A stretch of DNA of 64,000 bases from Hanleya hanleyi (taxonomy: Eukaryota > Mollusca > Polyplacophora > Lepidopleurida > Hanleyidae). The notes under the pieces are model-generated. The model had not been told where the DNA came from. It saw only the letters and a program-made list of their open reading frames with translations, and made no database searches. This document shows, piece after piece, positions 10,476 through 32,758 of the stretch; position 1 is the stretch's first letter, and each line of letters begins with the position of its first letter. The stretch lies in contig JAVTVY010025317.1 of the NCBI GenBank assembly GCA_036873755.1, positions 36,127 through 100,126 of the forward strand. Direction: 5' to 3'. The position numbers and the translations under genes are program-made.

Positions 10476-10639
10476 GCCCGTAGGACATAGTGTACACCAG
10501 GGTGCGGGTGCGATCGGAGCTCTTGGAGCTCAAAGCGTGTGGAGCTCAGAGCTCGGAAGTGACATTTGCATATGACCTCTGTGAGGTCACTTCCGCTTCC
10601 GTTCACGTGACCCGAACTGACCTTTGACCCCTGCGCGCG
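10476..10639. other. Central spacer of the palindrome
   Basis: The arms stop at CTGTACCCTATA on the left and start again at AATAGGGTACAG on the right. The 164 bp between are unique to the centre. They hold CATAGTGTACACCAGGGTGCG, four GAGCTC sites, a TGACCTC-TGT-GAGGTCA inverted repeat within a GGAAGTGAC/GTCACTTCC hairpin, the E-box CACGTGACC, and TGACCTTTGACCCC. The first part matches 31800-31885 and the last part matches 30490-30535. This points to a functional control or replication region shared by the family. Confidence 0.75.
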
Positions 10640-10671
10640 CTAATAGGGTACAGAGTGCACCAGGTATGTAT

Positions 10672-10829
10672 GCCCAGTGGTGGTGGTCGTGGTGGTGGTG
10701 TGGTGGTGTGGTTGTGGTGGTGGTGGTGGTGGTGGTGGCGTTGACGGGCGTCAACGCCCGGTGGTGGTAGTGGTAGTGGTGGTGTGTGGTGGTGTGTGGT
10801 GGTGGTAGTGGTGATGGTGGTGGTGGTGG
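10672..10829. repeat. Right (TGG)n tract
   Basis: Mirror of the left CCA tract, with the GTTGACGGGCGTCAACGCC interruption. Confidence 0.9.
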
Positions 10830-11262
10830 TTGCATACACACACACACGCATACACACAGACGCATACACGCATACACACATACACTCAGACGCAATGCAC
10901 ACATACACACACTCATACACACGCGCACACACACATACACAGACACATACACACACATGCACACACACAGTCGCATACACACAGACGCAATGTACACATA
11001 CACACATGCATACATACATACAAACACACACAAACACAGACGCATACACACATTTGCATACACGCACACACGCTCGCATACACAGACGCATACACACACT
11101 TGCATACACGCACGCACGCATAAACACACACGCATACACGCATGCATACACACACACACACACACACGCGCACACACAGACGCATGCATACACAGACACA
11201 CACACGCACACACACACATACACACAGACACACATACACACATGCATACACACACAATATGA
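10828..11262. repeat. Right (CA)n-type microsatellite
   Basis: Impure CA/CATA/CGCA tract of about 430 bp, longer than its mirror (about 320 bp). No coding content. Confidence 0.95.
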
Positions 11263-11329
11263 CTATTCACATGCAGGACATGTGAGCTTCTGGACATGGA
11301 CCTGATAGAAGTCCGGAATGGTGGAACAT

Positions 11330-11430
11330 TCGTAAACATCCGGGCACTTTTACATCCGGGGACTTTTACATCCGGGTACATCCGGGTTCTTGTACATCCG
11401 GGCTCTTGTCAATGACGTCCGCGCCTACAT
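11330..11430. repeat. Right CATCCGGG motif cluster
   Basis: TACATCCGGG and close variants recur about six times. It mirrors 9765-9880. Confidence 0.6.
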
Positions 11431-11504
11431 CCGGGTACTTCTATCCGGGCCCTTTATCTGTGTGTTCCATACGGGTACATCGGGGTTTACACCTGAACAG
11501 CCGG

Positions 11505-11780
11505 ATAGTTACGGAGGTGACCGAAGAGACATGGAGGTGACCGAAGATGTCACGGAGATGCCCGAAGAGACACGGAGGTTACCGAAGATGTCACGGAGGT
11601 CACCGAAGAGACACGGCGGTGACCGAAGATGTCACGGAGGTTACCGAAGAGACACGGAGGTGCCCGAAGAGTCACGGACGTCACCGAAAAGACACGGAGG
11701 TGACCGAAGAGACACGGAGGTTACCGAAGAGACACGGAGGTGCCCGAATAGTCACGGACGTCACCGAAAAGACACGAAAT
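11505..11780. repeat. Right promoter-proximal 20-21 bp minisatellite
   Basis: About 13 copies of ACGGAGGTGACCGAAGAGAC with GATGTC and GCCC variants. It mirrors the left array but with a different order of variants. Confidence 0.8.
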
Positions 11781-11828
11781 GTCCAAGTTGAACTGATTGT
11801 GCTAAAAATAGATCACCAGCTAGCTTGC

Positions 11829-11836
11829 TATAAAAG
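11829..11836 (+). promoter_or_regulatory. TATA box of right zinc-finger gene
   Basis: TATAAAAG, with an initiator-like TTTCAGCA whose A is at 11857 (28 nt downstream) and the ATG at 11882. This is a textbook spacing for a Pol II core promoter with a 25-nt leader. Confidence 0.7.
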
Positions 11837-11881
11837 GGAAGCGGCCTGGCCGTTTCAGCAGACACTCTGTCAACCACCAAG

Positions 11882-12806
11882 ATGTTCACTTGTACTACGT
11901 GCTCGAAATCATTCACTCGTCTGCACGACTTGCGCCGCCATGAGGCTACCAAGCACGCCGGAACCGCCCGATATAGCTGTACGATATGTACACTGTCGTT
12001 TCAGCGCCCGGATCATTTACAGCGGCATGAACGTTCAATTCATGGGCCACCCAAGCGTCCATGCGAAGAATGTGGTCAACTCTTCAAACGACCCAGTCAG
12101 TTAAGACGCATGAGCGTTTGATTCATGGTCCGTCACCACGGCATGAGGGACAACTTTCCACTAAAGAGGCACTCAGGAGGGACAGACCCACTGAAGATGA
12201 ACCCGGGGAGACGAATGCCACTGGTGATGCGATCACGGAGAGCCCGCCTATACCCACAGTTCAGAAGAGCCTAGATATCCAGCCGGTCCCTAGCATTACT
12301 GTTCCCAGTCATACGCCTGACAACAACGACCATTTTCTGGAAGATGCGGTGGATGTTCCCAGCGATCTCTTACAGGACGCCCATCCAGTGAGTGACATAT
12401 ATCGGCGCCATTGGCCCATGATACGGCACTGTTTCCTCCGTCATCGCCCTATTCAAGATATCTACAATTTCCGGCTGACTGGCCTCACCCGTCTACGCAA
12501 CTACGTGGAAGCCATCTTCAATGACCAAGCTACGTCCTTCAAATTGAATCTGGCGTTTGGTTATGTGCTGCAGCATAAGGAGACAGACCAAGTCCGATAC
12601 TTTTACCCGAGCAGTAACATCCGGGTATTTGACCAACCGTTTACCATCATTAACCGGGCCTCGCTAGAGCCCGTGCTGGACCAATGGACCAATTGGATGT
12701 CTTGGAATGGGCCTATCAACAGCGCCCCAACACCAAGTGGGTCGTAGAGAGGGTCACCAATGTTACGTTCTTCGTGACAAAATTACGGAATCTTCCCATC
12801 GGATGA
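11882..12806 (+). pseudogene. C2H2 zinc-finger gene, right arm copy, two frameshifts
   Basis: This copy is nearly identical to the left-arm gene, including the three C2H2 fingers and the FTIINR and TFFVTKLRNLP blocks, and it keeps the ordinary LPIG-stop end at 12801-12806. Two single-base deletions break it. One lies near 12109 inside the third finger, so the first frame stops at 12119-12121. The other lies near 12685, so the second frame ends at 12747. The left copy is intact at both sites. The right arm therefore preserves the normal 3' end while the left arm preserves the frame. Confidence 0.85.
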
Positions 12807-12869
12807 ATGTATTAACCCATGCACTGATAGATACTCAGAATGCACAAACAACTATCTGAGGATATGTGG

Positions 12870-13150
12870 CCTCAACGGTATCCTGGCCTGCCCGACGATG
12901 ATTAGAATAAACGCGAACATGTTCAGAGCGAACATGGCCGAAGATGGAACTTTCTGAAATGGAGACTTCTGATTGGACAAGAATACATCTAACGGACAGG
13001 AACGAATATGACAAATGCAAATGGTGGCCTCTGATTGGACAAGAGTCTTCTTGAATTGTAAATATACCCAACGCGGCTCCCCCAGCGTGGGTATGATGTA
13101 ACATTGTGGAGAATAAACTATATGAAAAAAACTTCTTGTTGTTGTTGTTC
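12870..13150 (+). repeat. Right arm tail with AATAAA and (GTT)n
   Basis: Begins CCTCAACGGTATCCTGGCCTGCC, which matches the end of the coding region near 32500, and runs through two GATTGGACAAGA motifs to GAGAATAAACTATATG and (GTT)n. It looks like the 3' end of a second gene joined to the zinc-finger gene after an internal deletion. Confidence 0.6.
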
Positions 13151-13339
13151 TCTCATGTGTCATCCTTGTTGTTGTTGCTGTTGTTGTACTCTCTCCGGTC
13201 TGTTAAGGCGTAACGACGGACGTCACTGCATTTCGAAGAATGAGTGACAATTCCATGGAATATCTAGAAAATCAGAGCTTCTGAGCTATTTCACCAGGGC
13301 GTTGAATCATTGAGATTGGTGTTGGCGGCCGTTGCTACA

Positions 13340-13935
13340 AGATGACACCTCCCACGACGCATTCGGACCAAGTATGGTCCATCTCTACCCCAAATACCTT
13401 CCTTCACTGCCCCAAAATGCCCACTTTCGCTACTACTCGTGCTGATGACGCGGACATCCCGATTTGAGGGATGTACACCCCGAGAGCTACAACATGATAC
13501 TTCCCTAGACACATTCGGACCAAAGATGGTCCCTCTCTACCCCAAATACCTTCCTGTACTGCCCTAAAATGCCCACTTTCGCTACTACTCGTACTGATGA
13601 CGTCACCGATGACGTCACAGGTGACGCGGACATCCCTCAAATCGAGATGTACACCCCGAGAGCTACAACATGACACTTCGCTAGACACATTCGGACCAAT
13701 GATGGTCCCTCTCTACCCCAAATACCTTCCTTCACTGCCCCAAAATGGCCACTTTCGCTACTACTCGTACTGATGACGTCACCGATGACGTCACAGGTGA
13801 CGTGGGCAGCCCTCAAATCGGGGTCTACACCCCGAGAGCTACAAGATGACACTTTCCGGGACACATTCGGACCAAGGATGGTCCATCTCGACCCCAAATA
13901 CCTTCCTGTACTGCCCCAAAATGGCCACTTTACTT
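13340..13935. repeat. Right arm tandem array C, about 176 bp x 4
   Basis: Copies are marked by CAAAATGGCCAC or its variant near 13413, 13563, 13742 and 13918. One copy is shortened to about 150 bp and has lost its TGACGTCA pair. The mirrored left array has five copies. Confidence 0.8.
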
Positions 13936-14289
13936 ACTACAACCAACTACGCATGCGCAGATTGACCCGACTTGCACTTAAAAACACACCATTCTGACTC
14001 TAACCCACACAAGCTTCACTTTGACACCTTCCGCGACCCATAGCGGTCCATCTCTACCCCAAACACACACCCACATACCACCCAAAATGCCCGCTTTCTA
14101 TACTACGGCCAGACTGCGCATGCGCAGACTATTGAAAACGGACGAATCATTAGTCCAGTCGGATGCTCCTCCACGAGAGCTTCAAAATAAGATCTCATAC
14201 GACATCATAGGATCATTAGGGGCTCACCTAGACCCCAAAACGTCCACCGCGTATGGGCCTATACCCCCATAGCCATGCAGTATAGGCCT

Positions 14290-14740
14290 ATGGACCTACC
14301 CAGGCCTCGGTGAACTTTTCCAAAAATTTCACCGTTGGGCTCCGAGACCCTTCCCATCGTGTTCTAAATGACTAGACGTGAAAAACAAATCCAAACAGCC
14401 CATATCGCAATGAACGTGTGTGAATTTCCAAGGTTGAACCGATACCCCCATATAGCCAGTATGGAGCTATATGGGCTATATGGCACTTTTCCAAAAATTT
14501 CACCGTTTCGCTCCGGGACCCTTCCCATCGTGTTCTAAATGACGAGATGTGAAAAACGAGATCAAACAACCCATATCACAATGAACGTGTGTGAATTTTC
14601 CAGGTTGGACCTATACCCCCCATAGCCAGCCTATAGGCCTATATACAGACCTCGGTGACTTTTTCCAAAAATTTCACCGCTTCGCATCGGGACCCTTCCC
14701 ATTGTCATTTTCTTGGCGAGACGAGAAAAACGAGACCCCA
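14290..14740. repeat. Right arm tandem array B, about 172 bp x 3
   Basis: GACCCTTCCCATCGTGTTC or its variant recurs near 14346, 14518 and 14692. The left arm has four copies. Confidence 0.8.
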
Positions 14741-14869
14741 CAAGCCATAGTAAAGCCCACAAAAAAAATTGACCACCCCTCCCCCCATACAGCCATTTTC
14801 CCTTATATTGTATAATACAGACCCCTACTGTAGGGGTAAAGTCCGAGTTCCGCTTTTTATATTTTCGGA

Positions 14870-15520
14870 AAACAATCCTAATTTTACATGCACCCACCCC
14901 ATTGACTGGATAGGCAGGTCCCAATAAGCCCGGGGACCGATATTAGCCCTTTTGGCTAGAGTTGATAAGAGTTTTCCCCTATTTTAGGGGTGAAGTCCGT
15001 GTTCCGCTTTTTATATTTTCGGGGAAAAATCCTAATTTTAAATGTACCCACCCCATTGACTTGATAGGCAGGCTCCGATAAGCCCGGGGACCGATATTAG
15101 CCCTTTTGGCTAGAGTTGATAGGGGTTTTCCCCTATTTTAGGGGTGAAGTCCGTGTTCCGCTTTTTATAGTTTCGGGAAAAAATCCTAATTTTACATGCA
15201 CCCACCCCATTGACTTGATAGGTAGGTGCCAATAAGCCCGGGGACCGATATTAGCCCTTTTGGCTAGGGTTGATAGGTGTTTTCCCCTATTTTAGGGGTA
15301 AACTCCGTTTTCCGCTTTTTATATTTTCGGGAAAAAATCATAATTTTACATGCACCCACCCCATTGACTTGATAGGCAGGTCCCAATAAGCCCGGGGACC
15401 GATATTAGCCCTTTTGTCTAGGGTTGATAGGTGTTTTCCCCTATTTTAGGGTAAAGTCCGTGTTCCGCTTTTTATATTTTCGGAAAAAATCCTAATTTTA
15501 CATGCACCCACCCATGACTG
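14870..15520. repeat. Right arm tandem array A, about 154 bp x 5
   Basis: TTTTACATGCACCCACCCC or a variant recurs near 14888, 15045, 15198, 15352 and 15505. It mirrors 4923-5790, which has six. Confidence 0.85.
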
Positions 15521-16039
15521 GATGCCCCTTCACGAATGCTTCACTTTGATACCTCACTCGACCCAATCGGACCATGCAGCGTATTTGAAGTCTAGGGACT
15601 ACTTTTTCTCCGCGGAAGCTTTTTCCCGCGACCGTATCACCGCCAGACCGCGGAGGAATTCGAGGTGAAAGAGGGGGCGCCACCTGTTGGAACTATTGCG
15701 GCCTTGACCTCTACACGGCCTCAGAGGTCAAAGGCCGTAAATGGCCGCTTCCTACACTTTAACCTGGGTTCCCCCTTAAATTTTACCCGGGGGAAGTAGG
15801 TCAATGCGCGGGTAAATGCCGTCTACCTACTACTGAGCTTGTAGTAAACACATATTTACAATTTAATGTTTTCACAAACGTATCAGTTTTTATAACTGGC
15901 CATTTATCTGTTAGCAGCGAATTATTTGATGAACAATTATAGGGAAGCAAAACAAAAATGTGAGAAAAATCCTCTATCCTACGGAGCCGTAAAAGGGACA
16001 TGGAAATTATTTTTTTCAACCCCTGAAAATTTTTCTTTT

Positions 16040-16420
16040 CGTCTTATTAAGTCGTTATAACGACTTAATAAAAAAAAAAAAAAAAAAATGGGGGCTGAAA
16101 ATTTTTCTTTTCGTCTTATTAAGTCGTTATAACGACTTAATAAAAAAAAAAAAAAAAAAATGGGGGCTGAAAATTTTTCTTTTCGTCTTATTAAGTCGTT
16201 ATAACGACTTAATAAAAAAAAAAAAAAATCGGGGCTGAAAATTTTTCTTTTCGTCTTATTAAGTCGTTATAACGACTTAATAAAAAAAAAAAAAAAAAAA
16301 ATAGGGGCTATTTTTTTATTTTTTTTTTATTATGTCGTTATAACGACTTAATTGACCAATGAAATTGCAGCATTAAGTCGTTATAACGACTTATTAAGTC
16401 GTTATAACGACTTAATTGAC
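16040..16420. repeat. Left array of 18-bp palindromes
   Basis: Seven copies of AAGTCGTTATAACGACTT, a perfect 18-bp palindrome. Four are followed by poly-A and a GGGGCTGAAAATTTTTC spacer in 67-76 bp units; the last two lie 24 bp apart. Confidence 0.9.
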
Positions 16421-17694
16421 CAATGAAATTCCGTCTTACTTCTGCAGCTTTTATTTTGTTAACTGACACCTCCCCGGTGAAACAGCGTTTAGATAGGCAC
16501 TATCAAGGGCAGATCTACGGGGGGTGGGGTCAGGGGTCCCCCCAATTAGACCTGTAGAAAAAATGAGAGAGGGATCAGCGAACCCTGGAATTTCACGTAG
16601 AAATAATATCTTGAAATTATATCTAAAATAAACGAATGTGGATTATGTAATCAGAGTATCTATTGATATATTAAACAGACATCTATTTATGTGGTTTGTG
16701 AGCGTACTATATTTCGTTGTTGAATATGAAAACATTATGGCTACGAGCGCTCCACGTGTGAAGTGTTAGTCCTGATTTGTATGTGTTTTACCACAATGTC
16801 AAATGGGGGCATAAGGTCTGATACTTTTCAATATCGATGCGTGCTTATGCGAAACAAAAGTGAAAGTTAATCTACATACATTATGTTCGATTTATTTTGT
16901 TTTGGTGCATTTTGACGGTATATATTCTGTTTGTTTTGAATGAACATTAAACCGTTGCTCGATCTGGAGCTCAGTTCCCACTCTCATGTTTTTGATTGCA
17001 TGGGTCTCTCCATTTTTCCTAACTGGATGTAAAACTCCATAAGTTCAGTCTTGTTCAATCTATGAACGGCTCTCCCAGAAAGTGTCGAATTTACGCATGC
17101 AAACGCTGTGTTGTGGTGCATTATGATAGTAGGATTACGGCATTTGTATCACATGTGTTATTCTCTGCGAAAATTATCAAAACTATAATCCAGTGTTTAG
17201 CCTCTCAACCCATCCCACCCCTCGCCCCCGGCTCCGCCGTGCCTGAATAGGTGTTAGTAAAATCCGTCTGCATTTCACATTTTTTCGCTTGTCTGTTTAG
17301 GAGTGGACTACAGCTATACCTATACAATTATCAGCATGTCTGACCCATTTTTAATTCTTTGAAGTGAGCCGCCATACCGCTCGAGCCAACGCTACAAGCT
17401 CCTCAATTATCTGTAATGGTTGGTGCCGAGCAAAACAATTTTGGTGATATTATCGGACCAACACAGAGAATCCATGTGAATTGGCAGGTTTGGGCATAGA
17501 GTCATAGGGTTGCCTTTTAGTCGGCAGACGCCGTCAACTTTCCCCACCTCTATAGCCTACATATCTCTCCAATTTATCCAAAGTTTATTACTTCAATGGC
17601 ATTATCAGACTTCATACTGCATATCTAAACGCTGTTTCACCGGGGAGTTGTCAGTTAACAAAATAAAAGCTGCAGAAGTAAGACGGAATTTCAT

Positions 17695-17945
17695 TGGTCA
17701 ATTAAGTCGTTATAACGACTTAATAAGTCGTTATAACGATTTAATGCTGCAATTTCATTGGTCAATTAAGTCGTTATAACGACATAATAAAAAAAAAAAA
17801 AAAAAAAAAAAAATAGCCCCTATTTTTTTTTTTTTTTTTATTATTAAGTCGTTATAACGACTTAATAAGAAGAAAAAAAAAATTCAGCCCCCATTTTTTT
17901 TTTTTTTTTTTTTTAAGTCGTTATAACGACTTAATAAGAAGAAAA
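17695..17945. repeat. Right array of 18-bp palindromes
   Basis: Five copies of the same palindrome (two with one change), mirrored and with fewer units than on the left. Long A and T runs separate them. Confidence 0.9.
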
Positions 17946-18030
17946 AAAAAATTTCAGGGGTTGAAAAAAATTATTTCCATGTCCCTTTTACGGCTCCGTA
18001 TCTATCCCGTTCGTCATTACAGTTACTTGT

Positions 18031-18237
18031 TGTAGTGTTTCACTTTTACATGTCTAACATTGGAAGTGATACGGGCCATTGATAGTACATTGTACGCGCT
18101 CGTACAGAATGTTCTGGAAACCGGAAGTCGGGGTGTAACGACCGCATGTCATGGAATACAGTTATCGTTGATTTGATTCGATATGATTTGAGTTCAATCT
18201 GTTGTCATCGAGTGTCATCTGATATTCATATTCTACA
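18031..18237 (+). repeat. 5' LTR
   Basis: 207 bp, TGTAG...CTACA. It carries ten bases (GATTCGATAT-like) that are missing from the 3' copy. Confidence 0.95.
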
Positions 18238-18238
18238 T

Positions 18239-18250
18239 TGGCGACGAGGA
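18239..18250 (+). promoter_or_regulatory. Primer binding site, tRNA-Ser(GCU)-like
   Basis: TGGCGACGAGGA starts one base after the LTR. It is the complement of the 3' end of animal tRNA-Ser(GCU) including CCA, as recalled from known tRNA sequences. Confidence 0.7.
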
Positions 18251-18291
18251 AACTGAACTGAACGCTGGGGACATTAAATTAGAGCGGGAAA

Positions 18292-20112
18292 ATGGCGACA
18301 GATGTTGAAATTGGCGGAATCCCAAACTTCGACCCGACGGGTGATGCAACAACGTGCGCGACGAGATGGCGGCGATGGAAACGATCTTTCGAAGTTTTCG
18401 TGGTTGCCACAGGGGTTATAGATGATGTACAAAAACGGTGTTTGTTACTGCATTGTGCCGGAATGGACGTGCAGGACATTTTTGACACTTTCTCAGACAC
18501 GGGTACTGATTACAAAACTGCGCTCGAGAAATTGGATGAACACTTCACTCCACAAGTCAACATTCCTTACGAGAGACATTTATTTCGGCAAATTTGCCAG
18601 GAGGAAGGTGAGTCAGTAGATCATTTCGTCACTCGACTAAAGCAGAAAGCTGTTAGCTGCGATTTTGGTGACTCTGTCGACGAGCACATCAGCGATCAAG
18701 TGATTGACAAATGTAGGCAGCATCAGTTAAGAAGAAAATTTCTCGAAAAGAGCAAAGATTTGACTTTAACAAAATTGACTGAAATAGCTCGTGCATTCGA
18801 ATCTGTACAAGCTCAAGCTTATCAAATGGAAGCTGGAGCATCAGGATATTCAAGTCAAAATCTGACAAAAACACCCGTGAACAAACTAACTGAAAACAAA
18901 CACAAATCTAAGGAAAATGACAATACACGAAAAGATGTGAAATGTTTTCGATGTGGTCGAAATGGTCACATTTCGAAAGACAGAAACTGCCCCGCCATTG
19001 GTCAAAAATGCAACAAATGTGGTGGAGCGGACCATTTTTCAGTCGTTTGCAAAACGAAGCGTTCCGATAGGAAGCAGGCCAGTAACCATGGCAACCCGCG
19101 ATTCAAACAAAATTCACATGGTAAATCTTGGAACAAAAACAAATTGAATTTCATGGCTGACGACGATGATGAATTCGCGTTCAGAGTGGGAGATTTCGTA
19201 CGCAACGGTATGATATCAGTTTCTGTTGGGTCGGTGCCTGTGGAAATGTTGATAGACTCTGGCGCGAGCTGTAATGTCATTGACCGTGCGACGTGGGAAA
19301 ATCTGAAACGGCGAAAGCTTGATTGCAAGCACAACGAAAAATGTGACAAGAAACTCTACGCGTATGGTTCCGGAAAACCATTATCGGTGGCCGGAAAGTT
19401 CACGGCGGACATTGTGGCAAATGATAAAACCTTCGAAGCAGAATTTATCGTCGTAGAGGGCCAAGGCGAAGCATTATTAGGTCAGAAAACCGCAGTCCAG
19501 TTGGGTGTTCTAAAATTAGGACCAGAATTAAATTCAGTACGGACTGACATTGATTTCTTGGATGAATTCAAATCCTGTTTCGAGGGTGTAGGGAAACTCA
19601 AGGACTATGAAGCGAGGATTCACATCGACAAAGACGTTCCACCCGTGGCTCAACCAACACGTCGAATTCCATTCCATTTGCGTGACAAAGTGGATGAAAA
19701 ACTGAAGCAACTCGAGGATATGGACATTATCGAAAATGTGAACGGCCCAAGTCATTGGGTAAGTCCAGTCGTGATCGTGCCAAAACCTTCTGGTGATATT
19801 AGATTGTGCGTGGACATGCGCAGAGCCAACGAAGCTGTAATTCGGGCACGTCACCCCATTCCAACAGTGGAAGAAGTCCTTCACAACATGAATGGTAGCA
19901 AGGTTTTCACCAAACTCGACTTAAGATGGGGCTACCATCAAATCATGCTTGATGAAGAGTCACGTGATATCACCGTTTTGTCGACGCATCGCGGTTTGTA
20001 TCGTTACAAACGACTGATGTTTGGAATAAGTTCAGCCAGCGAACTGTATCAGAACCTGATCCAGCAGGTACTTCAAGGGTGCGAAGGCGCGGAAAATATA
20101 TCGATGATATAG
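18292..20112 (+). pseudogene. Gag-protease-reverse transcriptase part of gypsy polyprotein
   Basis: The 606-residue frame starts with ATG 41 nt after the primer site. Residues 1-210 are Gag. Two CCHC knuckles follow near 217-250 (CFRCGRNGHISKDRNC and CNKCGGADHFSVVC). A retropepsin with LIDSGAS lies near 318. Reverse transcriptase begins near 440 and includes VPKPSGDIRLCVDMR and KLDLRWGYHQI. The frame stops at 20110-20112, where the catalytic aspartate pair is expected. A one-base loss after 20103 explains this, because the family sequence resumes in the next frame. Gag and Pol are in one frame here, with no frameshift between them. Confidence 0.9.
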
Positions 20113-21632
20113 TAATCCATGGAAAGGATGTCCGCGAACATGACGAACGACTGCGTAAAGTCCTCGAGCGCTTGTCGGAGAAAGGCATCACGTTAAATCC
20201 AGAGAAATGCCAATTTCGGATGTCGGAGTTGACGTTCATGGGAAACGAACTGTCGGACAAAGGAGTCGGACCGACACGTGCCAAGGTGGAAGCTGTTGTG
20301 AACGCGAGACGTCCCGAAACGGCATCTGAAGTCCGTAGCTTCCTCGGTTTGGTTAATTTCAGTGCGCGGTTCATTCCGGATGTCGCGACAGTCTCCGAGC
20401 CATTGAGACGGTTGACCAAGAAGAATGTACCATTTTCCTGGAGCGAGAAAGAACAGAAATCATTCGACACTTTGAAACAGAGACTATCCGATGCGAAAAC
20501 ACTTGCCTACTTTGATCGTGACGCAAAAACATGCGTGATCGCTGATGCATCACCGGTAGGAATTGGAGCAATATTATTCCAGGTAGACAAAAACGGGGAG
20601 AGTCAAGTTGTGAGTTACGCAAGTCGGAGTCTAACGGACGTGGAAAAACGATACTCACAAACGGAACGGGAGGCCCTCAGTCTCGTTTGGGCGTGTGAGA
20701 GATTTCATCTCTACATATATGGGACGGCCTTCGACTTGATCACGGATCATCGCCCGTTAGAGTTCATATATTCGAAACACTCCAAACCGTCCGCGAGAAT
20801 CGAGCGCTGGGTCCTGCGATTGCAGCCATACTCGTTCACGGTTCGATACAAGCCTGGGAAGACGAATATCGCGAACGCGTTATCAAGATTGACACAGATC
20901 AGGGAAACGTCTGTACCGACATGTCAAAACGTCGCGGAGGAATATATCCGATTCGTGGCTGAAAGCTCGGTGCCAGCATCCATGAGTGCGACAGATGTGG
21001 AGCGTGAGTCTGCTGTGGATGAAGAACTTTTGGAAGTTCGTGCTAGCATCAAATCCCAGAATTGGAAATCGGAGAAGGTACAGGGATACAAAACTGTCCG
21101 AAATGAGCTGACCGTGATCGGTAAATTAGTGCTTCGGGGCACTCGAATCGTCATACCGCGACGCTTGCGCAAACAAGTTCTGAAACTTGCGCATGAAGGC
21201 CATCAAGGCATCGTGAAAACGAAAATGCGACTCCGAACAAAAGTTTGGTGGCCCGGCATGGATCACGAGGCGGAAAGTTTGTGTAGGAGTTGTCACCCCT
21301 GTCAGTTGGTGAGTCAGCCACCGCCTCCAGAACCGATGGAAAGGTCAACGTTTCCGACGGGACCGTGGGAAGATTTATCGTTGGATTTGCTCGGACCGCT
21401 GCCATCGGGAGATTACATCATGGTTCTCGTCGACTATTACAGTCGATACTATGATGTCGCTTTTATGAAGTCGACCACGTCATCAAATCTGATCGATCAT
21501 CTGGAGAAAATGTTTGCCATATATGGACTTCCATACTCAATCACAACAGACAATGGATCAAATCTGGTCTCTGAAGAATTTGAGGCTTACTTGAAGTCAC
21601 TCCACTGTGGCCCCAAGCCAATGGGGAAGTAG
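20079..21632 (+). pseudogene. RT C-terminus, RNase H and integrase N-terminal part
   Basis: This frame continues the reverse transcriptase from its catalytic DD. RNase H follows (VIADASPVGIGAIL, QTEREALSLVWACERFHLYI, LITDHRPLEF). The integrase zinc-binding region is HEGHQG...CRSCHPCQ, and the core provides its first two acidic residues in LSLDLLGP and TTDNGSN. The frame ends at 21632 because a short deletion near 21600 removes the region before PLWPQANGEVER and shifts the frame. The start shown is only the end of an upstream stop-free region. Confidence 0.9.
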
Positions 21633-22631: not shown

Positions 22632-22645
22632 GAGAAAGAAAGGGA
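22632..22645 (+). promoter_or_regulatory. Polypurine tract
   Basis: GAGAAAGAAAGGGA abuts the 3' LTR start and would prime plus-strand synthesis. Confidence 0.8.
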
Positions 22646-22842
22646 TGTAGTGCTTCACTTTTACATGTCTAACATTGGAAGTGATACGGGCCATTGATAG
22701 TACATTGTACGCGCTCGTACAGAATGTTCTGGAAACCGGAAGTCGGGGTGTAACGACCGCATGTCATGGAATACAGTCATCGTTGATTTGATTTGAGTTC
22801 AATCTGTTGTCATCGAGTGTCATCTGATATTCATATTCTACA
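22646..22842 (+). repeat. 3' LTR
   Basis: 197 bp, identical to the 5' LTR apart from two substitutions and the 10-bp gap. Confidence 0.95.
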
Positions 22843-22847
22843 CTTGT

Positions 22848-24386: not shown

Positions 24387-25355
24387 GGGAACACCGCTGA
24401 ATGCATCAGCCGGGGCTTGGACCCACTTTGAACAGCTTGTTTTTCGACCTCTTTCACGCCACGCGTCACCAGTTTGTCGTCGCAGTGACGTGCTACGTGG
24501 TGCGCGGGAGGATATCATGACGGATGGGAACACCGCTGAATGCATCAGCCGGGGCTTGGACCCACTTTGAACAGCTTGGTTTTCGACTTCTTTCACGCAA
24601 CGCGTCACCAGTGGAAGGAACGTGGAAGCCTCCTGCCCTCGTTGAATACGCCACCTCCTTGACGGGTGTAAATAATACTATATAGCTATGTGCATCGTAC
24701 TGGTAAGGCACCTTCCGTGTCAGTATACAGAGTTAAAAGAGCGCGCCTCTCAAAATTGGAGTGTCACCAACAGTTTCTCAAGTTCGAATGCTATCGGTTA
24801 ACAGGTGTCGTTCCTTATATCGATGGATATGTTAATGATGTGGGTCTGTCGGACTGGCAGATAGAGCACGTGGTTAAAGTTTTGTATTTGACTTGACCTT
24901 CGTATTTGCCTTGCACCGGATCGAGTGAAGTTATAGGTGCTACACTCCTACACGATTTTTACCACATCGTGTCCTTTTTACACGCTGCACCATGTGTAAG
25001 TGTTCCGCATGTACACTAGGCCACATTTCCAGCGCCAAGGGAGATGTACAGCTAGGGAACGAGAGCTGCGTGCGTAGTGGGCTACGGTTTTGTTGGGAAA
25101 CACCTTGGGGGCAGTGTGATGTACAACACGATGACTGAGACTTCCTTCTTCTGCTGCTGTTATTATTATATGTCCCAATCCTGGGGGCTTGTTATCGGTT
25201 TCGTGGTCGTCGCAGTGACGTGCTACGTAGATACGGGGAAGGATATCATGACGTATGGGAACACCGCTGAATGCATCAGCCGGGGCTTGGACCCACTTTG
25301 AACAGCTTGTTTTTCGACCTCTTTCACGCCACGCGTCACCAGTGAAAGGAACGTG

Positions 25356-26774
25356 GAATTACAAGCATCTAGTCCGTCATTCATAATTCAGCCGTCGTCC
25401 TTTAGAGAATATCCGCGTCCATAATCCAAAGACCTATTCCATATAACAGTATTTGCACCAAATTCAAAAAGACAATCATAGTATACATAAACATAGGCTT
25501 GTTTCCTGCAAGAGAGAAGCGGTCAACAGTTTTCAATGATGCCGGCAAGACATCATGATGTTCCAAAAATATCAAATCCGTATCGCTGATCAGTATTCTT
25601 AATCCATAATATTCGTTGTAAGTCGTCATCTAAAGAATGATGTATCTCAGTCACGCTTTGATTGTGACTGTTCATATGAGTACCATGAGGATCTTGAAGT
25701 ACATGGGTTCATACGGCCCCTAGCCCCGGGTTAAGCGGAATTAGACACAAGTTACGAAACGTAGCGCCATAGATCTTGCACGCTACGTTCGTATTTTGCT
25801 ATCAGCATGCGATATGTATCGCCAAATTTGAGAAACTTTGAGTGGAGGCGCTTGGTGGTGTAGCCCTGTTTTATAAGTTTCTGCAACAATGTTTTGTGAC
25901 GTTGATTAAAATCGTCACATTTAACACAGGATCTAGCAAATGCTACTAGGCGTGATATGTATACGCCATATGCAGGTCCCACTGGAATATTACTGTCCAG
26001 AAAGGGATAGTTTACGATGTCGAAATTGTAGTCATCTCTTTTGTCATACAGTCGACGAGAGAGAAGGCCCGCTTCATTTTTATAGAGATATAGGTCCAAA
26101 TATGTTGTGCCTGTGGGGTTATCTGTAGTTTCCTTCAAATCCAGTGAAGGTGGATATATATCCTTCACTGCGTCATTTATATAGCGATTATCCACAGCGA
26201 GAAGATCGTCTATATAGCGTTTGGTGAATGAGAAGGAACGGGCTTTGAATGGATCGGTTTTTGAAAGCGCCTGCATATAGTCATATTCATAAGAGAACAG
26301 ATACAGGTCAGCCAACAGGGGTGCACAATTAGTACCCATTGGAATACCTATATGCTGCTGATATATTGTGTTGCCAAATTTCTCATAGATATTTTTAATG
26401 AGAAATTCAAGCAACTCTATAAACAAAGAAACATCCCGTGAATGATATCTCTTGTATGTAGTCGAGCTAAAGAATGCTTTATGGCTTCCGACATTAATAT
26501 ATCTACGATCAGTTTTCTTGAACACAGATACTATTAATGAACTTATACGGTCAATAAGGTCCTGATGAGGGATTGTAGTATAGAGAGTCGAGAAATCCCA
26601 TGGGGATACATGTCTGTACGGTATGTGACCTTTAGCATCAAGTTCTTTCGTAAGACATTTTGAGTTTTTCAATATCCACATACATTCAACGCCAGAGTTT
26701 TTAGAAACAGTGGCGCAATACCTTTCCCAAAATGCTTTTACCTCCTGAAGCGATGCATCGTATTTGAAGGCCCC
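25356..26774 (-). mobile_element. 5'-truncated Penelope-like retroelement
   Basis: The insertion lies between AACGTGGA at the end of X3 and CCCTGCCCTCG at the start of Y2; X and Y are directly joined at 24625/24626. It contains a C-terminal reverse transcriptase frame on the minus strand, then a 75-residue open frame (25629-25402) with a hydrophobic segment. No GIY-YIG endonuclease is visible. Part of its 3' region recurs, rearranged, at 28440-28735. Confidence 0.7.
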
Positions 26775-26795
26775 TGCCCTCGTTGAATACGCCAC
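25752..26795 (-). pseudogene. Penelope-like reverse transcriptase, N-terminally truncated
   Basis: The frame encodes about 340 residues of reverse transcriptase. Diagnostic strings are WDFSTLYTTIPHQDL (motif A with its aspartate), GIPMGTNCAPLLADLYL (motif B) and RYIDDLLAV (motif C with both aspartates), then TYLDLYLY. These are characteristic of Penelope-like elements. The first dozen residues are read from flanking Y2 sequence, and there is no natural start codon. The N-terminal motifs and the usual endonuclease are missing. Catalytic residues that are present are intact, so truncation rather than mutation inactivated it. Confidence 0.8.
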
Positions 26796-27039
26796 CTCCT
26801 TGACGGGTGTAATACTTTATATAGCTATGTGCATCTTCCGTGTCAGTATACAGAGTTAAAAGAGCGCGCCTGTCAAAATTGGAGTGTCACCAACAGTTTC
26901 TCAAGTTCGAATGCTATCGGTTAACATGTGTCGTCCCTTATATCGATGGATATGTTAATGATGTGGGTCTGTCTGACCGGCAGATAGAGCACGTGGTTAA
27001 AGTTTTGTATTTGACTTGACCTTCGTATTTGCCTTGCAC

Positions 27040-27345
27040 CGGACAGACACGTTGCAGGGCCGCGTCGATATCACCGAAAATGTGCCCGTCCACAACATAA
27101 GAATAGATATATAGGCCGTATAACACAGCCTTGAGATCCAGCATTGTCCTCCCTCGAAGACGTCTGTGCCGGCGCAGTCCTCCGAATCCAGTGCACACAC
27201 ACACCATCCGTCTTGCTGAAACGTATGGTTACAATGTGGTTGAGGATGACTCGGAATTGGCGGATCCACGCATCGTACGTTAGGTGGAAGTAATCTGTAA
27301 AAGGGTTACCCCCGGAAATACTGCCCTTGACCATATACATCAAAG
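27040..27345 (-). pseudogene. Unrecognised gene remnant in block Y2
   Basis: Minus-strand frames give FTDYFHLTYDAWIRQFRVI and, after one frame change, CTGFGGLRRHRRLRGRTMLDLKAVLY split over two frames, then GLYIYSYVVDGHIFGDIDAAL. The continuity of non-repetitive protein-like sequence suggests a real gene of the virus-like element. I cannot name it. Y1 lacks this part. Confidence 0.4.
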
Positions 27346-27689
27346 CATTAATGAATATTGTGGGTTCATGGAACTGACCTCCAGATCGAGTGAAGTTATA
27401 GGTGCTACCCTCTTACACGATTTTTACCACACCGTGTCCTTTTTATACGCTGCACCATGTGTGAGTGTTCCGCATGCTCACCAGGCCACATTTCCAGCGC
27501 CAAGGGAGATGTACAGCTAGGGCACGACAGCTGCGTACGTAGTGGGCTACGGTTTTGTTGGGAAAACCGATGACTGAGACTTCCTTCTCCCGCTGCTGTT
27601 ATTATTATATGTCCCAATCCCGGGGGCTTGTTATCGGTTTCGTGGTCGTCGCAGTGACGTGCTACGTGGTGCGGGGGAGGATATCATGA

Positions 27690-28140
27690 CCCATGGTGTC
27701 CGTGGGTGGTGACTCGCGTTTCCAGGTTACCAGCTGCTGCACCCAGGTCCAGTGCTGGGGCTTCACTTGCCAATTCTTGTTGCGCTTGCATGTATTTCAG
27801 TCCTCGAACGAACACCTCCATCATTGTGGGTGTGGTTGTGACTTGCGTTAAAGCATCATGTCATTCACCAAATCGGTCATGTGGGTGCCGGGGACCGCTT
27901 GGTTTCGTTCCCCTTTATTATTCCAGGTCATGTTAGGATTGTCTTTTACCCACCGTGAGACTAAGCCGGCCTTCTTCTTGAACGCTGTGGGACCACTGTT
28001 CAAGACATTTGTATTCGACCCCCGTTAAGGTAAGAGTGGTGGGCTGGTCTGATGAAGTTGAGCAGAGGGCGATGGTGTGGTTGGTGGTGGTGCTAGAGTA
28101 AAGAGGCCCTTATATTGACTCATAATCGTCATGTACCGTT
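27690..28140 (-). pseudogene. Remnant of a virus-like element gene (VPGTHMTDLVNDMM)
   Basis: The minus strand reads MSQYKGLFTLAPPP near 28112, then after a stop FKKKAGLVSRWVKDNPNMTW, VPGTHMTDLVNDMM and finally TMGHDILPRTT. From memory the PGT-x-x-x-DLVND phrase recurs in uncharacterised proteins of invertebrate virus-like elements that also carry a packaging ATPase. This is unverified. Stops and at least one frameshift show it is dead. Confidence 0.4.
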
Positions 28141-28439
28141 GAAGGGTCACATTGTCCTGTTTTACTTCCTCACTGTCGCTGCAAAATGTGACTCGTGTCC
28201 TCAACGAGCTTTTTTCGACGTTTCCACCGTAGGTGGAATAGAGTATGGCGTTTGGAGGCTGAGAAGCAGGCGTGTGTTAAACAGGGCTAAATTCTGTATC
28301 GTTCATTGTCGGCCGAAATAAACGCAACATTAAAACGAGGTACTGACAAGAAGTCATATGACCGCACAGATAAATATACTGACTGAATATTCCTAAAAAC
28401 ACCACAAGAACCAAAAGTGATCCCTGTGAATATTTGTCT

Positions 28440-28735
28440 CCCAGCCACGCTTTTACTGTAGCTGTTCATGTGGATATATTGAATGATATGACCACACGGC
28501 CACTAGCATCGGCTTGAGCGGTATTAGATACAAATATTTCCGATCGATGATCTAATAGCCCTATCAAGTCATCTGTTGGAAAAAAATGAACTATGTTGCA
28601 GCCAGATAGTAACAAAGCGGTCCAAATGAGTGAGTATACTATGATTGTCTTTTTGAATTTGGTGCTAATACTGTTATATGGAATATGGAATAGGTCTTTG
28701 GATTATGGACGCGGATATTCTCTAATGGACGACGG
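28440..28735. repeat. Rearranged copy of the Penelope-like 3' region
   Basis: Bases about 28636-28735 match the minus strand of 25388-25490 (CTATGATTGTCTTTTTGAAT through GACGCGGATATTCTCTAA). The first part, 28441-28530, matches plus-strand 25655-25750 in direct orientation. The two halves are therefore inverted with respect to each other, as often seen for Penelope-like insertions. Confidence 0.6.
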
Positions 28736-28739
28736 CTGA

Positions 28740-29289
28740 CCCACCCAATAGCGGACCTATCACGGACATGGCCAACGGGGCTAAAATGGCACCGAGGCAG
28801 CCACCATTCTATCACAGCTTTTTCTTAACTCTTGGACTAGGGTTTGGAGACCTGTCTTATGCATGTCCAACTTGGTCTCCTGAGCTGGAGTCACAGGATT
28901 TTTGCCCTTTAATATGTTCTATCCGATCTCAAACAGATAGTATACAAGGGCGGAAACTGCCTAGCACACAATAGCCAGGACAGAGTTGAATGGGGCTGTC
29001 TTGAATACCCGGAGCGCCGATGTGTGCTTCCGTATTCGAGAAGACATCATACACAACTGAGGCCGGAACCCACGACCTGCCCTCTTGTTGTTTGCATACT
29101 ACGTACTATGACTGCAGAAACAAACTCAACAAAGTTGGCGAGTTTTATTTTATTTGTTTTATTCTCTCCTCCATCGCACACACACCCCAGATTGGGGCGC
29201 TACTGTGTGTGTGTGTGTACATAACAATGAACGGTTTGTTTAGCTTTTTTGCATATGCACGTGGTGGATCACTCAGGAAAAATTCCGAT
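28740..29289. other. Intergenic, no gene recognised
   Basis: The open frames are short and unsupported. A (GT)n run is at 29203-29217. This may be part of the decayed virus-like element. Confidence 0.4.
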
Positions 29290-29757
29290 CCATAGTCGGA
29301 GATGATCGGAGGTGGCTTGCTTCAGGTGGAAGAGTATATAATCGAGCTGGGGGCCTGCCGCATCTTTAAAGGCTTCCATCGCAAACTGGGTGCGGCCGGG
29401 ATACATCTATCTGCAGCAGTTGAGTGATGTCCACCAACGGGTAGTGATCATCTAAATTGAGGTTTCGATGCTCTTTGTTTATACAAACAGATTCTGCACA
29501 ATGTATATGCAGCTGAGCTGCCGATGATGGCTGCCGTTGATAAAGAGCTGGGTTACCGGAGCGTCAGTTTCCACCACAAGATCATCCATGAAAACCAATG
29601 TGTCCGGTTCCAAATCAGTCGGGATGGGTAGGCCTTCCATGTTGGGTATCGTCTCGTACGACCCGAGCGATGGGTGGGGTAACCATGCTGTTGGCATATT
29701 GAAGGAGTATCCTTCTGGACGAAGTGCGTTTTGCTCGTCGGCCCCACAATGAGGCAG
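29290..29757 (-). pseudogene. DNA-packaging ATPase-like fragment (FtsK/HerA type)
   Basis: Minus-strand frames show, in order, GPTSKTHFVQK (a Walker A loop that appears to have lost residues), then DTLVFMDDLVVETD (a Walker B pattern with DD), LFINGSHHRQLSCIYIVQNLF (a conserved sensor-like block), and after a stop QFAMEAFKDA and YILFHLKQATSDHLRLW. The whole order matches, from memory, the packaging ATPase of Polinton/adintovirus-like elements, which would drive DNA into a capsid. There is one frameshift between Walker A and Walker B and at least one stop after QNLFV. The N-terminal part before Walker A is not seen. An ABC-type or other P-loop ATPase is less likely because of the SHHRQLS..QNLF block. 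Confidence 0.55.
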
Positions 29758-30410: not shown

Positions 30411-30479
30411 CCCTTCTGACATATTTGCTTTGACTGTGCGCATGATGACAAGGGCTGATTGACTTACTTATGCAGTTAT

Positions 30480-30665
30480 CACCTCTTGACATACTTTCGG
30501 GAACGGCCACGTGACCGAAAGTGACCTTTGACCCTGAGCGCCAACTTGTCCTGACATGTTTATATAAAATGTGTAGTAAAACCTTCGTTGACCACCTTAA
30601 GGTGTTATCTCCTCCTGACCTACTTCCGGCTCCGGTCAAGTGAACGGAAGTGATCTTTAACACAC
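30480..30665. repeat. Two copies of a 40-bp motif shared with the palindrome spacer
   Basis: The motif TTCCGG..CGGTCACGTGACC..GGAAGTGACCTTTGACC occurs at about 30499-30536 and, more diverged, at 30629-30665. A third copy is in the palindrome spacer at 10587-10630. It combines an E-box, an ETS-like GGAA and a TGACCTTTGACC nuclear-receptor-like direct repeat. Confidence 0.6.
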
Positions 30666-30792
30666 TGTTTTTTTCCGGTACTGTTTGTAATATGACAAAT
30701 TTCAGCCAAGTTAAAGCAAGTTTCAATGGGCCAAAATCAGCAATCACACTAAGTACAGGTTGCGGGCCATTCTGGACATCCCAAAACTGCAA

Positions 30793-31358
30793 GTGGTTCC
30801 TGTTTGTAAGAACGGCACGGTGACATGATCATGAGTGGTTTGTCAGACTTTTCCCAAATGGTATGGGAGTCGTGGTCACTTTATATTGAAGGCTGCATAC
30901 TCCAGGTGCGATTAGAGCACATGTATGTGTATGTTATACCAGAAGTAAATCAGCTTGAAGTGTGTATCCTTAGACTATACTACCTAGAATACATTGACCA
31001 TCGCCTCCCTGCTTCTAAGCATTCAAGTGATGTATTTACGCAGTAAGATTGGGATGTGTCGTGTTCGCGCAGATTCGAAACAAAATTCGAGTGAGGTATC
31101 ATGAGAGATGAGCTGATGCTAGAATTTAAATACTCACCAATGATATCCCGCGTTACGGTGGCCCATAGAGGACGATTTTTTATAGTTTTTTTTGTACAGT
31201 TTTCAGTATTTTTTCTGAATTTCTTGTGGATTTTCTCCGTTTTTCGCCTATTTTTCTACAAACAAATTCACAGATTTCTTTAGATTTCTGTCATTACTTG
31301 TAACGTCGTCATAAATGCCTTTATCATTTTTTTTTACCGAAAACCGAACAAAACTCTT
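30793..31358. other. Intergenic, no gene recognised
   Basis: AT-rich, with a TTTTT-rich stretch at 31180-31260. Nothing coding is supported. Confidence 0.5.
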
Positions 31359-31632
31359 GGAAACGTTCACACCGCGGTGAAAACGTTTACACAGCGGCGA
31401 AAACGTTTACACCGCGGTAAAAACGTGTACACCGCGGTGGAAACGTTTACACTGCAGTGAAAACGTTCATACCACGGCGGAAAGGTTTACGCTGCGGTGG
31501 AACTGCTTACACCGTGGTGGAGACCTTCATACCGCGGTGGAAACGTTCACACAGCGGTGGAAACCTTTTGAACAGTGGTGGAGATCTTTACACTACGGTG
31601 GAACCGTTTACACTGCGGTGGAAACCTTTTAC
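31359..31632. repeat. 20-bp minisatellite, about 13 copies
   Basis: The unit GGAAACGTTTACACCGCGGT repeats with one or two changes per copy. A 67-residue open frame across it is a by-product of the period. Confidence 0.9.
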
Positions 31633-31659
31633 CTTTTACACTACCCACACGTTAGTATA

Positions 31660-31945
31660 ATATAGCATAATCTCGGCTGCTCTTGTCCAGTCAGAAGCCG
31701 CCATTTGAGCTCGGAGCTGTGGGATGGAGTGGTTAAGACCTCGAAGCTCTTGGAGATCGGAGCTCGGAGGTGACGTCATCGCACGCATGCGCACGCACCT
31801 GTTATGCACCCTGTAACCTATAACCCGTAAGGCATAGGGTACACGGGCATAGGGTACACCAGGGTGCGTGTGCACCACAGGCACGTGCGCATGCGTGCGT
31901 GCGATGACGTCACTTCTGAGCTTCAAGAGCTCCGAGCTCTATCAA
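31660..31945. repeat. Palindromic non-coding head of the 31.7-kb element
   Basis: GTGACGTCATCGCACGCATG (31770-31789) pairs with an inverted copy ending GCGATGACGTCAC at 31914, forming a hairpin of about 28-bp stems. Inside are GCACCCTGTAACCTATAACC and a duplicated GGCATAGGGTACAC, then CAGGGTGCGTGTGC. These match 10460-10515 in the centre of the giant palindrome. GAGCTC-rich flanks are shared too. Confidence 0.7.
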
Positions 31946-31966
31946 CATGGCTTATCAACCATCAAC

Positions 31967-32561
31967 ATGGCTTATACTTCCTCTGAGTGCGAACGCACGT
32001 TTACCAGACGTTACGATATGATGCTACACCAGAAGAATATACATGGGATTGAAGACACCGAAGCACAAGAAGCCAATGCAGATGCTGAGTCCGCCGACTA
32101 TTACCGAAACAAAGACTGTTGAAAGTCTATCTACTGATACGGAGAGCTTGATCTCTGATAGTCAGCCTACATCTCAGGGAAGTGAGGAAGAACCTACCTT
32201 TTGGGATTGTATTGTGCATGAAGCTATTAATACTTACGCTCCGGCGATCGAAGACGGCGGATAGGGTAACTTACAACAGGCGTACATCAAAATGCGCCCC
32301 TGCATCAGAAAAACAGCCATGGCGATCTATGTGCGGTATAGTGTGCTACCGTTTGAAATGAAAGGCGATCCCACGCACAGGTCCATCATGAAGACCAGGC
32401 GTCACTTGGAAGAGAATATGGGGCTACCACCCACCAAGGCCCTGCAAAATGCGATCAAACTGCGCAAACATCTGTTCCAGGAAACGTTGCCGTTACAGTA
32501 TCCTGGCCTGCCCGGCGACGATTGGAATAAACGTATCAGAGCGAACATTGGCGAAGATTGA
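31967..32561 (+). pseudogene. Zinc-finger gene of the virus-like element, broken
   Basis: ATG 31967 opens a C2H2-type finger (SSECERTFTRRYDMMLHQKNIH) in which the first cysteine is replaced by serine. A frameshift near 32040-32110 moves the frame to a Ser/Thr/Glu-rich linker and EEPTFWDCIVHEAINTYAP. One TAG at 32262-32264 then interrupts the same frame before YIKMRPCIRKTAMAIYVRYSV, DPTHRSIMKTRRHLEENMG and ALQNAIKLRKHLF. From memory the HR-x-IMKTRR..ALxxAIxxRKxLF pattern belongs to finger proteins of invertebrate virus-like elements. The end, QYPGLPGDDWNKR, matches degraded sequence in both palindrome arms. Confidence 0.6.
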
Positions 32562-32758
32562 ACTTTCTGAAATGGCGGTTTCTGATTGCACAAGAGCAGC
32601 CGAGAATACATCTAACGGACAAGAACGAATATGGGAGATGCAGAGCCAAATGGCGGCCTCTGATTGGACAAGAGCCTACGAGAATTGTAAACATACCCAA
32701 TGCGGCTCCTCCAGCTTGGGTATGATGTAATATTGGGGAGAATAAACTATGTGCAAAC
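32500..32758 (+). repeat. Tail shared with both palindrome arms
   Basis: TATCCTGGCCTGCCCG, CTTTCTGAAATGG, two GATTGGACAAGAG motifs, CGGCTCCTCCAGCTTGGGTATG and GGAGAATAAACTATGTG follow the order of 12875-13125 with roughly 85% identity by eye. It is the 3' end of the family's second gene and its probable polyadenylation region. Confidence 0.75.

What the first reader, a model, noticed from the sequence alone, without database searches (positions are those of the whole stretch)
10476..32758. Palindrome and the 27-33 kb block share non-coding cassettes: one undescribed element family
The palindrome spacer (TACCCTATAGCCCGTA..CATAGTGTACACCAGGGTGCG) matches 31800-31885. Its E-box/ETS/TGACCTTTGACC part matches 30499-30536. 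The tails of both arms match 32500-32758. In both places the shared head precedes a C2H2 finger gene and the shared tail follows it. A common head and tail with different coding content is what a modular mobile element or endogenous virus would show.
Basis: partly seen in the sequence, partly recalled or inferred. Interest (0 to 1): 0.9.

Follow-up and report, generated by a model that had tools for sequence, protein, structure and literature searches.

The report
Palindromic zinc-finger elements with Maverick ends
Two stretches of this animal genome that looked oddly alike belong to a very numerous family of palindromic mobile elements that carry zinc-finger genes and have the ends and target-site duplications of virus-like Maverick/Polinton elements, while the copy studied here lacks the Maverick genes.

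Summary
In detail: palindrome 4593-15834 and the 27-33 kb block share a hairpin head, promoter-like motifs and a 300-bp tail. Genome-wide the parts are linked: on 37 contigs, 49 of 51 neighbour relations fit one order, end-gene-centre-gene-end, genes pointing outwards. Patterns of centre and end occur 1,474 and 1,941 times. All 15 ends aligned run to ACTACT and then diverge. [quoted passage not shown] the window copy has none. Published Mavericks show (AGT)2//(ACT)2 ends and 6-bp duplications (PMC8097293, passages). Autonomous-looking Mavericks are in the same genome. In the window palindrome no Maverick protein match was found; the 24.4-29.7 kb block is a decayed Maverick. Three-finger and one-finger genes lie beside the same centre; the three-finger gene has been under purifying selection (dN/dS 0.27). 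Best reading: palindromic, C2H2-coding, non-autonomous elements mobilised by Mavericks. The two stretches are separate copies, not one 22-kb element. How palindromes form and what the protein does is inferred.

The parts
4593..15834 (.). palindromic C2H2 element (about 11.2 kb), arms 4639-10474 and 10643-15795
   Evidence: self-BLAST; ends AGTAGT at 4593 and ACTACT to 15834, flanks unlike those of 12 other ends; no target-site duplication at this copy (CATGTG / GAGCTT)
4593..4598 (+). left terminus AGTAGT
15829..15834 (+). right terminus ACTACT
10475..10642 (.). palindrome centre (head): octamer-, ETS-, E-box- and TGACCTTTGACC-like motifs (motif names recalled); one half only, most other scored copies have both halves round an about 20-nt loop
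10460..10497 (.). hairpin module TACCCTATAGCCCGTA..GTACAC shared with 31807-31844
8299..9303 (-). 3-finger C2H2 gene, left arm, 334 aa here (in most other scored copies the match ends at residue 307)
11834..12747 (+). same gene in right arm, frame broken
7844..8130 (-). shared tail, left arm
12835..13128 (+). shared tail, right arm
6841..7638 (.). 176-bp tandem repeats of the arm (partner array 13470-13931)
5947..6448 (.). 163-bp tandem repeats of the arm (partner array 14301-14749)
4914..5770 (.). 154-bp tandem repeats of the arm (partner array 14822-15513)
24422..29685 (-). decayed Maverick/Polinton gene block: ATPase 29685-29368, 120-aa protein 29050-28829, 239-aa protein 28183-27818, 280-aa protein (minor-capsid-like, recalled) 27565-26849 and part copy 25118-24732; PX-like (recalled) hits 24623-24561 and 24472-24422 are no better than the control
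   Evidence: tblastn with proteins of Maverick C27644 of the same genome, same gene order and strand; best hit in a 10-kb control stretch E 0.014, none for the ATPase set
30508..30541 (+). E-box/TGACCTTTGACC motif shared with palindrome centre; second weaker copy 30622-30661
31736..31940 (.). hairpin head of the one-finger unit (self-inverted, 66%)
31967..32561 (+). broken one-finger C2H2 gene (relative of the intact 190-aa frames in L031 and L033)
32561..32797 (+). 3' tail with AATAAA at 32741-32746
32891..32896 (+). terminus ACTACT of the unit, followed by unrelated DNA

Best explanation
The shared head and tail belong to a family of non-autonomous mobile elements. A full copy is one long palindrome: two inverted arms of roughly 2-6 kb round a hairpin centre, each arm with a C2H2 gene pointing outwards (TATA-like box and AATAAA seen in the one-finger type), then tail, tandem repeats and a terminus AGTAGT...ACTACT. 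Shown: architecture, termini, 6-bp target-site duplications, copy number, no Maverick protein match in the window palindrome, past purifying selection on the 3-finger gene, and Mavericks with long open frames in the same genome. Inferred: the Maverick integrase inserts them and the protein-primed Maverick polymerase copies them in trans. Inferred: the palindrome arose when that polymerase switched strands and copied back, giving a self-complementary defective genome with the same replication end on both sides, as described for other protein-primed replicons (recalled). Inferred: the C2H2 protein binds head or end motifs and regulates element or helper transcription.
For: Order END-gene-HEAD-gene-END in 49 of 51 adjacencies, 37 contigs, hits from three separate searches. 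1,474 centres and 1,941 ends at <=3 mismatches, backward-read control 0 for both. 15 of 15 aligned ends stop at YACTACT: 12 fetched of the 40 scored, 3 in the window. 6-bp duplications perfect in 4 of 6 testable pairs: C2301, C4342, C28979, C30643. Of 16 neighbouring end pairs on one contig among the places listed, 13 are (-,+). Two Mavericks start to match each other one base before AGTAGTA; Maverick C27644 has DNA_pol_B_2, integrase with chromodomain and an Adeno_IVa2/Pox_A32-like ATPase. dN/dS 0.27 between two sublineages in the coding frame against 1.10-1.46 in four of five other frames. No Maverick frame matches the window palindrome better than E 0.028.
Against: No element was found that has both these arms and a Maverick polymerase or integrase; the helper's terminal sequence shares only AGTAGTA and short motifs with the palindromes. 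Two of 6 testable elements, and the window copy, lack the duplication. No homology of the C2H2 proteins to Maverick proteins was detected (tblastn best E 0.32). Replication and binding were not tested. Tandem arrays (C19769, period about 5.1 kb) show that some copies arose by local duplication. Among near-identical A' copies dN/dS is about 1 (few differences) and frame -1 also gives 0.35 (third-position mirror); for the one-finger gene stop-free copies give 0.55, hardly below the 0.62 of copies with stops.
Confidence: 0.78

Rival explanations
1. A foldback transposon of another superfamily (P/Galileo-like or Mutator-like), whose long internally repetitive inverted repeats resemble these arms; the AGTAGT ends are a coincidence.
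For: Arms are long inverted repeats built of 154-, 163- and 176-bp tandem repeats; Galileo and Tm1 are foldback families of other superfamilies (starts of abstracts in the listings).
Against: Termini (AGT)2//(ACT)2 with 6-bp duplications are the Maverick signature (PMC8097293) and were met; P and Mutator elements make 7-9 bp duplications (recalled).
Confidence: 0.1
2. Host C2H2 gene clusters amplified by segmental duplication and satellite-like tandem arrays; mobility is not involved.
For: Tandem arrays at C19769 (period about 5.1 kb) and C20708 (one-finger genes 6,569 bp apart); very high copy number.
Against: Flanks diverge at the terminus in 15 of 15 aligned ends and 4 of 6 testable elements have 6-bp duplications; duplication does not give that.
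Confidence: 0.05
3. The palindromes are ordinary Mavericks that lost their middle: the finger gene is a normal Maverick gene of the terminal region and the palindrome is only what is left of two inverted repeats.
For: In the window a finger unit and a Maverick-type terminus (31.7-32.9 kb) lie beside a decayed Maverick block (24.4-29.7 kb), and E-box motifs of the head occur at 30.5-30.7 kb. Four of four contigs with two polymerase genes in the (capped) listing have them divergent.
Against: No finger gene was detected in the sampled parts of Mavericks (ten polymerase loci and parts of two elements, both incomplete). The centre loop is one conserved 28-nt sequence in 1,474 places, so the palindrome seems to multiply as such.
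Confidence: 0.25

Closest known systems
Maverick/Polinton elements (polintoviruses)
   Same: [quoted passage not shown] members with long open frames in the same genome
   Different: the window palindrome has no match to polymerase, integrase, ATPase or capsid-region proteins, is self-complementary almost throughout and carries C2H2 genes; the type is present at over a thousand places
Foldback elements (Drosophila FB, Galileo; Mutator-like Tm1)
   Same: very long, internally repetitive inverted repeats with a short middle
   Different: ends and duplication length are those of Mavericks; the arms carry a gene
Palindromic defective genomes of protein-primed viruses (adenovirus, phi29; recalled)
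   Same: expected form: two copies of one genome end joined head to head round a short loop
   Different: here chromosomal, in more than a thousand copies, with a gene that was under selection; the mechanism was not tested
Virophages and satellite viruses (works like, not member)
   Same: a coding genome that would depend on another virus-like replicon
   Different: no evidence of particles or of effects on a helper

Membership tests
Maverick/Polinton | termini (AGT)2//(ACT)2 | tested here: met
   15 of 15 aligned ends (12 fetched of 40 scored, 3 in the window) end in ACTACT, then diverge; definition from PMC8097293 (passages)
Maverick/Polinton | 6-bp target-site duplication | tested here: met
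   4 of 6 testable elements perfect; C42670 and C4129 no; C1470 not testable (right terminus not in the fetched 77 bp); window palindrome no
Maverick/Polinton | protein-primed DNA polymerase B, integrase, ATPase, protease and capsid genes | tested here: not met
   46 frames of Maverick loci against the 100-kb contig: at E<=0.01 hits only in window 24.7-29.1 kb; these and the frames of L086 against the palindrome: best E 0.028. So the palindrome is filed as a non-autonomous element with Maverick ends, not as a Maverick. Other palindromes were not read through for such genes
Maverick/Polinton | same feature, for window block 24.4-29.7 kb | tested here: inconclusive
   ATPase, two further proteins and minor-capsid-like homologues, collinear, decayed; polymerase and integrase not found
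Maverick/Polinton | autonomous helper present in the genome | tested here: met
   PF03175: 164 matches from 84 scored of 1,723 candidates, frames over 1,300 aa; integrase and ATPase on C27644. Activity not tested, and the far end of C27644 was not read
Foldback element | long, internally repetitive inverted repeats with short middle | tested here: met
Foldback element of the P/Galileo or Mutator kind | P or Mutator transposase and 7-9 bp duplication | tested here: inconclusive
   duplication is 6 bp; transposase not searched
Satellite virus / virophage-like parasite | replication and packaging by a helper, effect on the helper | not testable with these tools
   no expression, replication or particle data

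The most novel reading that the evidence does not exclude
A coding satellite of Mavericks in an animal: a self-complementary linear genome of about 4-15 kb that is copied by the protein-primed polymerase and inserted by the integrase of Mavericks, that swaps its cargo between kinds of C2H2 gene while keeping centre and ends, and whose finger protein, kept by selection, controls its own or its helper's promoters. It has reached well over a thousand palindromes and, if the loose first-look numbers are near the truth, tens of thousands of gene copies: a virophage-like tier inside an animal genome.
Probability: 0.35. Interest if true: 0.88.

Novelty: new variant of a known kind. Interest (0 to 1): 0.66.

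Why it matters
Non-autonomous partners are well known for most transposon groups; for Mavericks six fixed phrases found no paper in the library searched. A palindromic, gene-bearing form at this copy number would show how protein-primed replicons make parasites of themselves. It would also explain a source of large palindromes, which are hard on assemblies and chromosomes, and of C2H2 gene expansion. The six-base duplications and the fixed centre make both claims testable in any long-read genome of the clade.

Tried and rejected
Chance or simple repeats: rejected by shuffles and by zero backward-read controls. One element spanning 10476-32758: rejected; two copies with other transposons between. 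Homologues of the 3-finger protein in the large protein set and in viral contigs: none. A link of the finger proteins to the polymerase's N-terminal part, suggested by recall: not found by tblastn; a profile comparison was not made. AGTAGT as a terminus by itself: unsafe, because the motif also occurs inside the 176-bp repeats and other arm repeats; only ends with diverging flanks were used. Partner end of the terminus at 32896: none found with duplication GTTATC in the contig. Fold prediction of the 3-finger protein: never started, machine busy. Count of tails by pattern: not answered. The host species was not identified.
Full report
WHERE. The window is contig C20674, bases 36127-100126, of a 2.48-Gb assembly in 52,793 contigs. 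GC and CpG are mostly high in window 1-32 kb and lower after about 33 kb.

OBSERVATION. Self-comparison gives a palindrome with arms 4639-10474 and 10643-15795 (pieces 91-94% identical) and a match of 32455-32757 to both arms (80.5% and 78.4%).

HEAD AND TAIL GENOME-WIDE. The tail query (32300-32760) has 8,826 first-look candidates; 40 were scored and gave 41 matches: the window itself, 39 others at 87-92% over most of the query, and one short one. Of 30 tail loci fetched, 29 were oriented (the window's own copy among them; L034 was dropped because its tail lay outside the position range I asked for). Each of six reference loci aligned with all 28 others over a core; homology on either side is shared by only some. 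The core is an intronless gene: TATA-like box, an open frame of 190 aa with one C2H2 finger (intact in L031 and L033), 3' part, AATAAA. The head query (10476-10652) has 1,026 candidates; 40 scored gave 76 matches, mostly inverted pairs about 18 bp apart, usually 94-98% identical. So the intact centre is two inverted heads round a loop GCTAACAATACCGGATAAAAATT; the window copy kept one half.

LINKAGE. I put together, by hand from the listings, places of the 3-finger gene, the end and the head that share a contig. On 37 contigs with two or more features there are 51 neighbour relations within 12 kb; 49 fit the order end(-), gene(-), head, gene(+), end(+). The two others are both in C19769, which holds a tandem array with a period of about 5.1 kb (L059). 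One relation on C33343 was over 12 kb and not counted. The scored hits are the best ones only, so this samples the better-preserved copies. The loop pattern occurs 718 + 756 times and the end pattern 959 + 982 times at up to 3 mismatches; the same patterns read backwards occur 0 times. The first-look numbers for the two proteins (52,406 and 46,394) are loose, not counts; of those scored, by my count of the listings, 98 of 120 and 134 of 150 have no stop inside.

DIFFERENT GENES, SAME FRAME. Three kinds of C2H2 gene were seen: 3-finger (A, and sublineage A'), multi-finger (B, L046) and one-finger (C). Of centres in the listing that share a contig with a listed gene, 9 of 9 A genes lie 0.6-1.9 kb away and point away; of 3 C genes, 2 lie 0.7-0.8 kb away and point away and one is 35 kb off. 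L045 and L046 are palindromes with C and B genes on both arms. The tail of the A arms matches the last codons plus 3' part of the C gene, which suggests that A elements arose by putting another gene into a C-type frame (inference).

ENDS. Twelve end flanks were fetched out of the 40 scored ends: ten whose match ran to the end of the query and the pair on C30643. Aligned with the three window ends, all 15 stop at YACTACT and then diverge. Of seven elements with both ends fetched, six are testable and four have perfect 6-bp duplications: C2301 TCCCAG, C4342 ACCCTC, C28979 CACACG, C30643 GGCGTT; C42670 and C4129 do not; C1470 could not be judged. The window palindrome has none (CATGTG and GAGCTT), its two ends are of different subtypes and its centre is halved, so it is probably a rearranged copy (inference). 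Distances between paired ends run from about 4.1 to 21.9 kb (13 pairs), with groups near 4.3 kb and 10-13 kb.

MAVERICKS. PMC8097293 (passages read) gives (AGT)2 and (ACT)2 as the commonest end motif of vertebrate Mavericks, with 6-bp duplications. In this genome DNA_pol_B_2 has 164 matches from 84 scored of 1,723 candidates, with frames over 1,300 aa. Two such elements, C27644 and C994, begin to match each other one base before AGTAGTA. C27644 has an integrase with chromodomain and an Adeno_IVa2/Pox_A32-like ATPase; frames that look like protease and capsid proteins were named by recall, since Pfam gave nothing for the four tested. The palindromes share the AGTAGTA end and short motifs such as GTAGGTCAA with these, not more. 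Against the window palindrome 46 Maverick frames give at best E 0.028, and the frames of L086 (integrase and ATPase among them) nothing at E 0.5.

THE 27-33 KB BLOCK. Proteins of Maverick C27644 match the window minus strand in the helper's order: ATPase 29685-29368 (E 1e-12), 120-aa 29050-28829 (3e-5), 239-aa 28183-27818 (5e-10), 280-aa 27565-26849 (2e-8) with a part copy at 25118-24732; PX-like hits follow but at E 0.012-0.09 they are no better than the control. A control stretch of the same length gave at best 0.014, and nothing for the ATPase set. The 120-aa, 239-aa, 280-aa and ATPase matches contain stops. A reverse-transcriptase frame (25752-26795) lies inside. The one-finger unit and an ACTACT terminus at 32896 follow at the right. 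Whether that unit was the end of this Maverick or a separate insertion cannot be told: an inverted piece of tail at 31668-31709 speaks for the remains of a small palindrome.

SELECTION. Between A and A' (5 x 5 copies chosen by hand, finger region; the broken right-arm copy of the window and further near-identical copies left out) dN/dS is 0.27 in the coding frame and 1.32, 1.10, 1.46 and 1.22 in four other frames; frame -1, whose third positions mirror those of the gene, gives 0.35. Within A 0.32, within A' 1.07, both from few differences. Over all stop-free pieces 0.35 (16 pieces, A and A' together) and 0.55 (7 pieces, C); C pieces with stops give 0.62, so for the one-finger gene selection is not shown. 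So the 3-finger protein mattered while sublineages parted; recent copies seem to drift.

MECHANISM. Shown: transposition with Maverick signatures of palindromes that carry finger genes. Inferred: copying and insertion in trans by Mavericks; palindrome formation by copy-back during protein-primed replication; a regulatory role of the finger protein. A hint for palindromes among Mavericks themselves: in the capped listing all four contigs with two polymerase genes (C28015, C41214, C17501, C4967) have them divergent.

NOVELTY. Six phrases for non-autonomous or defective Mavericks/Polintons found 0 papers; broader searches listed none whose title or shown abstract start is about such elements. Of PMC6431247 and PMC10045372 only passages were seen. 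These cover open-licence papers only, and Repbase reports were not searched.

Noticed in passing
window 18031-22842: Gypsy-type LTR element, LTRs 18031-18237 and 22646-22842 (94%), long gag-pol frames; AT-rich inverted repeats at 15980-16507 and 17610-18000 beside it.
   Followed up: partly
window 54248-62055: second LTR element on the minus strand, LTRs of about 740 bp 97% identical, reverse transcriptase, RNase H and integrase domains.
   Followed up: partly
window 25357-26795: reverse-transcriptase frame (weak RVT_1) whose end near 25357 recurs at 81-97% in a dozen fetched loci with varying lengths, with a 106-bp inverted piece at 28634-28739; looks like a Penelope-like element (recalled).
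   Followed up: partly
L059 (C19769:43600-53500): tandem array of palindrome halves, period about 5.1 kb; C20708 also has one-finger genes 6,569 bp apart.
   Followed up: partly
C28015, C41214, C17501, C4967 (listing): two polymerase-B genes per contig, divergent in all four, 9.5-28 kb apart: Mavericks themselves may form palindromes.
   Followed up: no
contig C20674 7041-7670 and 20013-20567; window 511-879: tyrosine-recombinase-like frames and a reverse-transcriptase piece, probably DIRS-like (recalled).
   Followed up: no
window 38538-39472: minisatellite of 118-157 bp units with AGGTCAAGGTCAA motifs.
   Followed up: no
window 47315-49114: 599-aa open frame without Pfam match, possibly a large host exon.
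   Followed up: no
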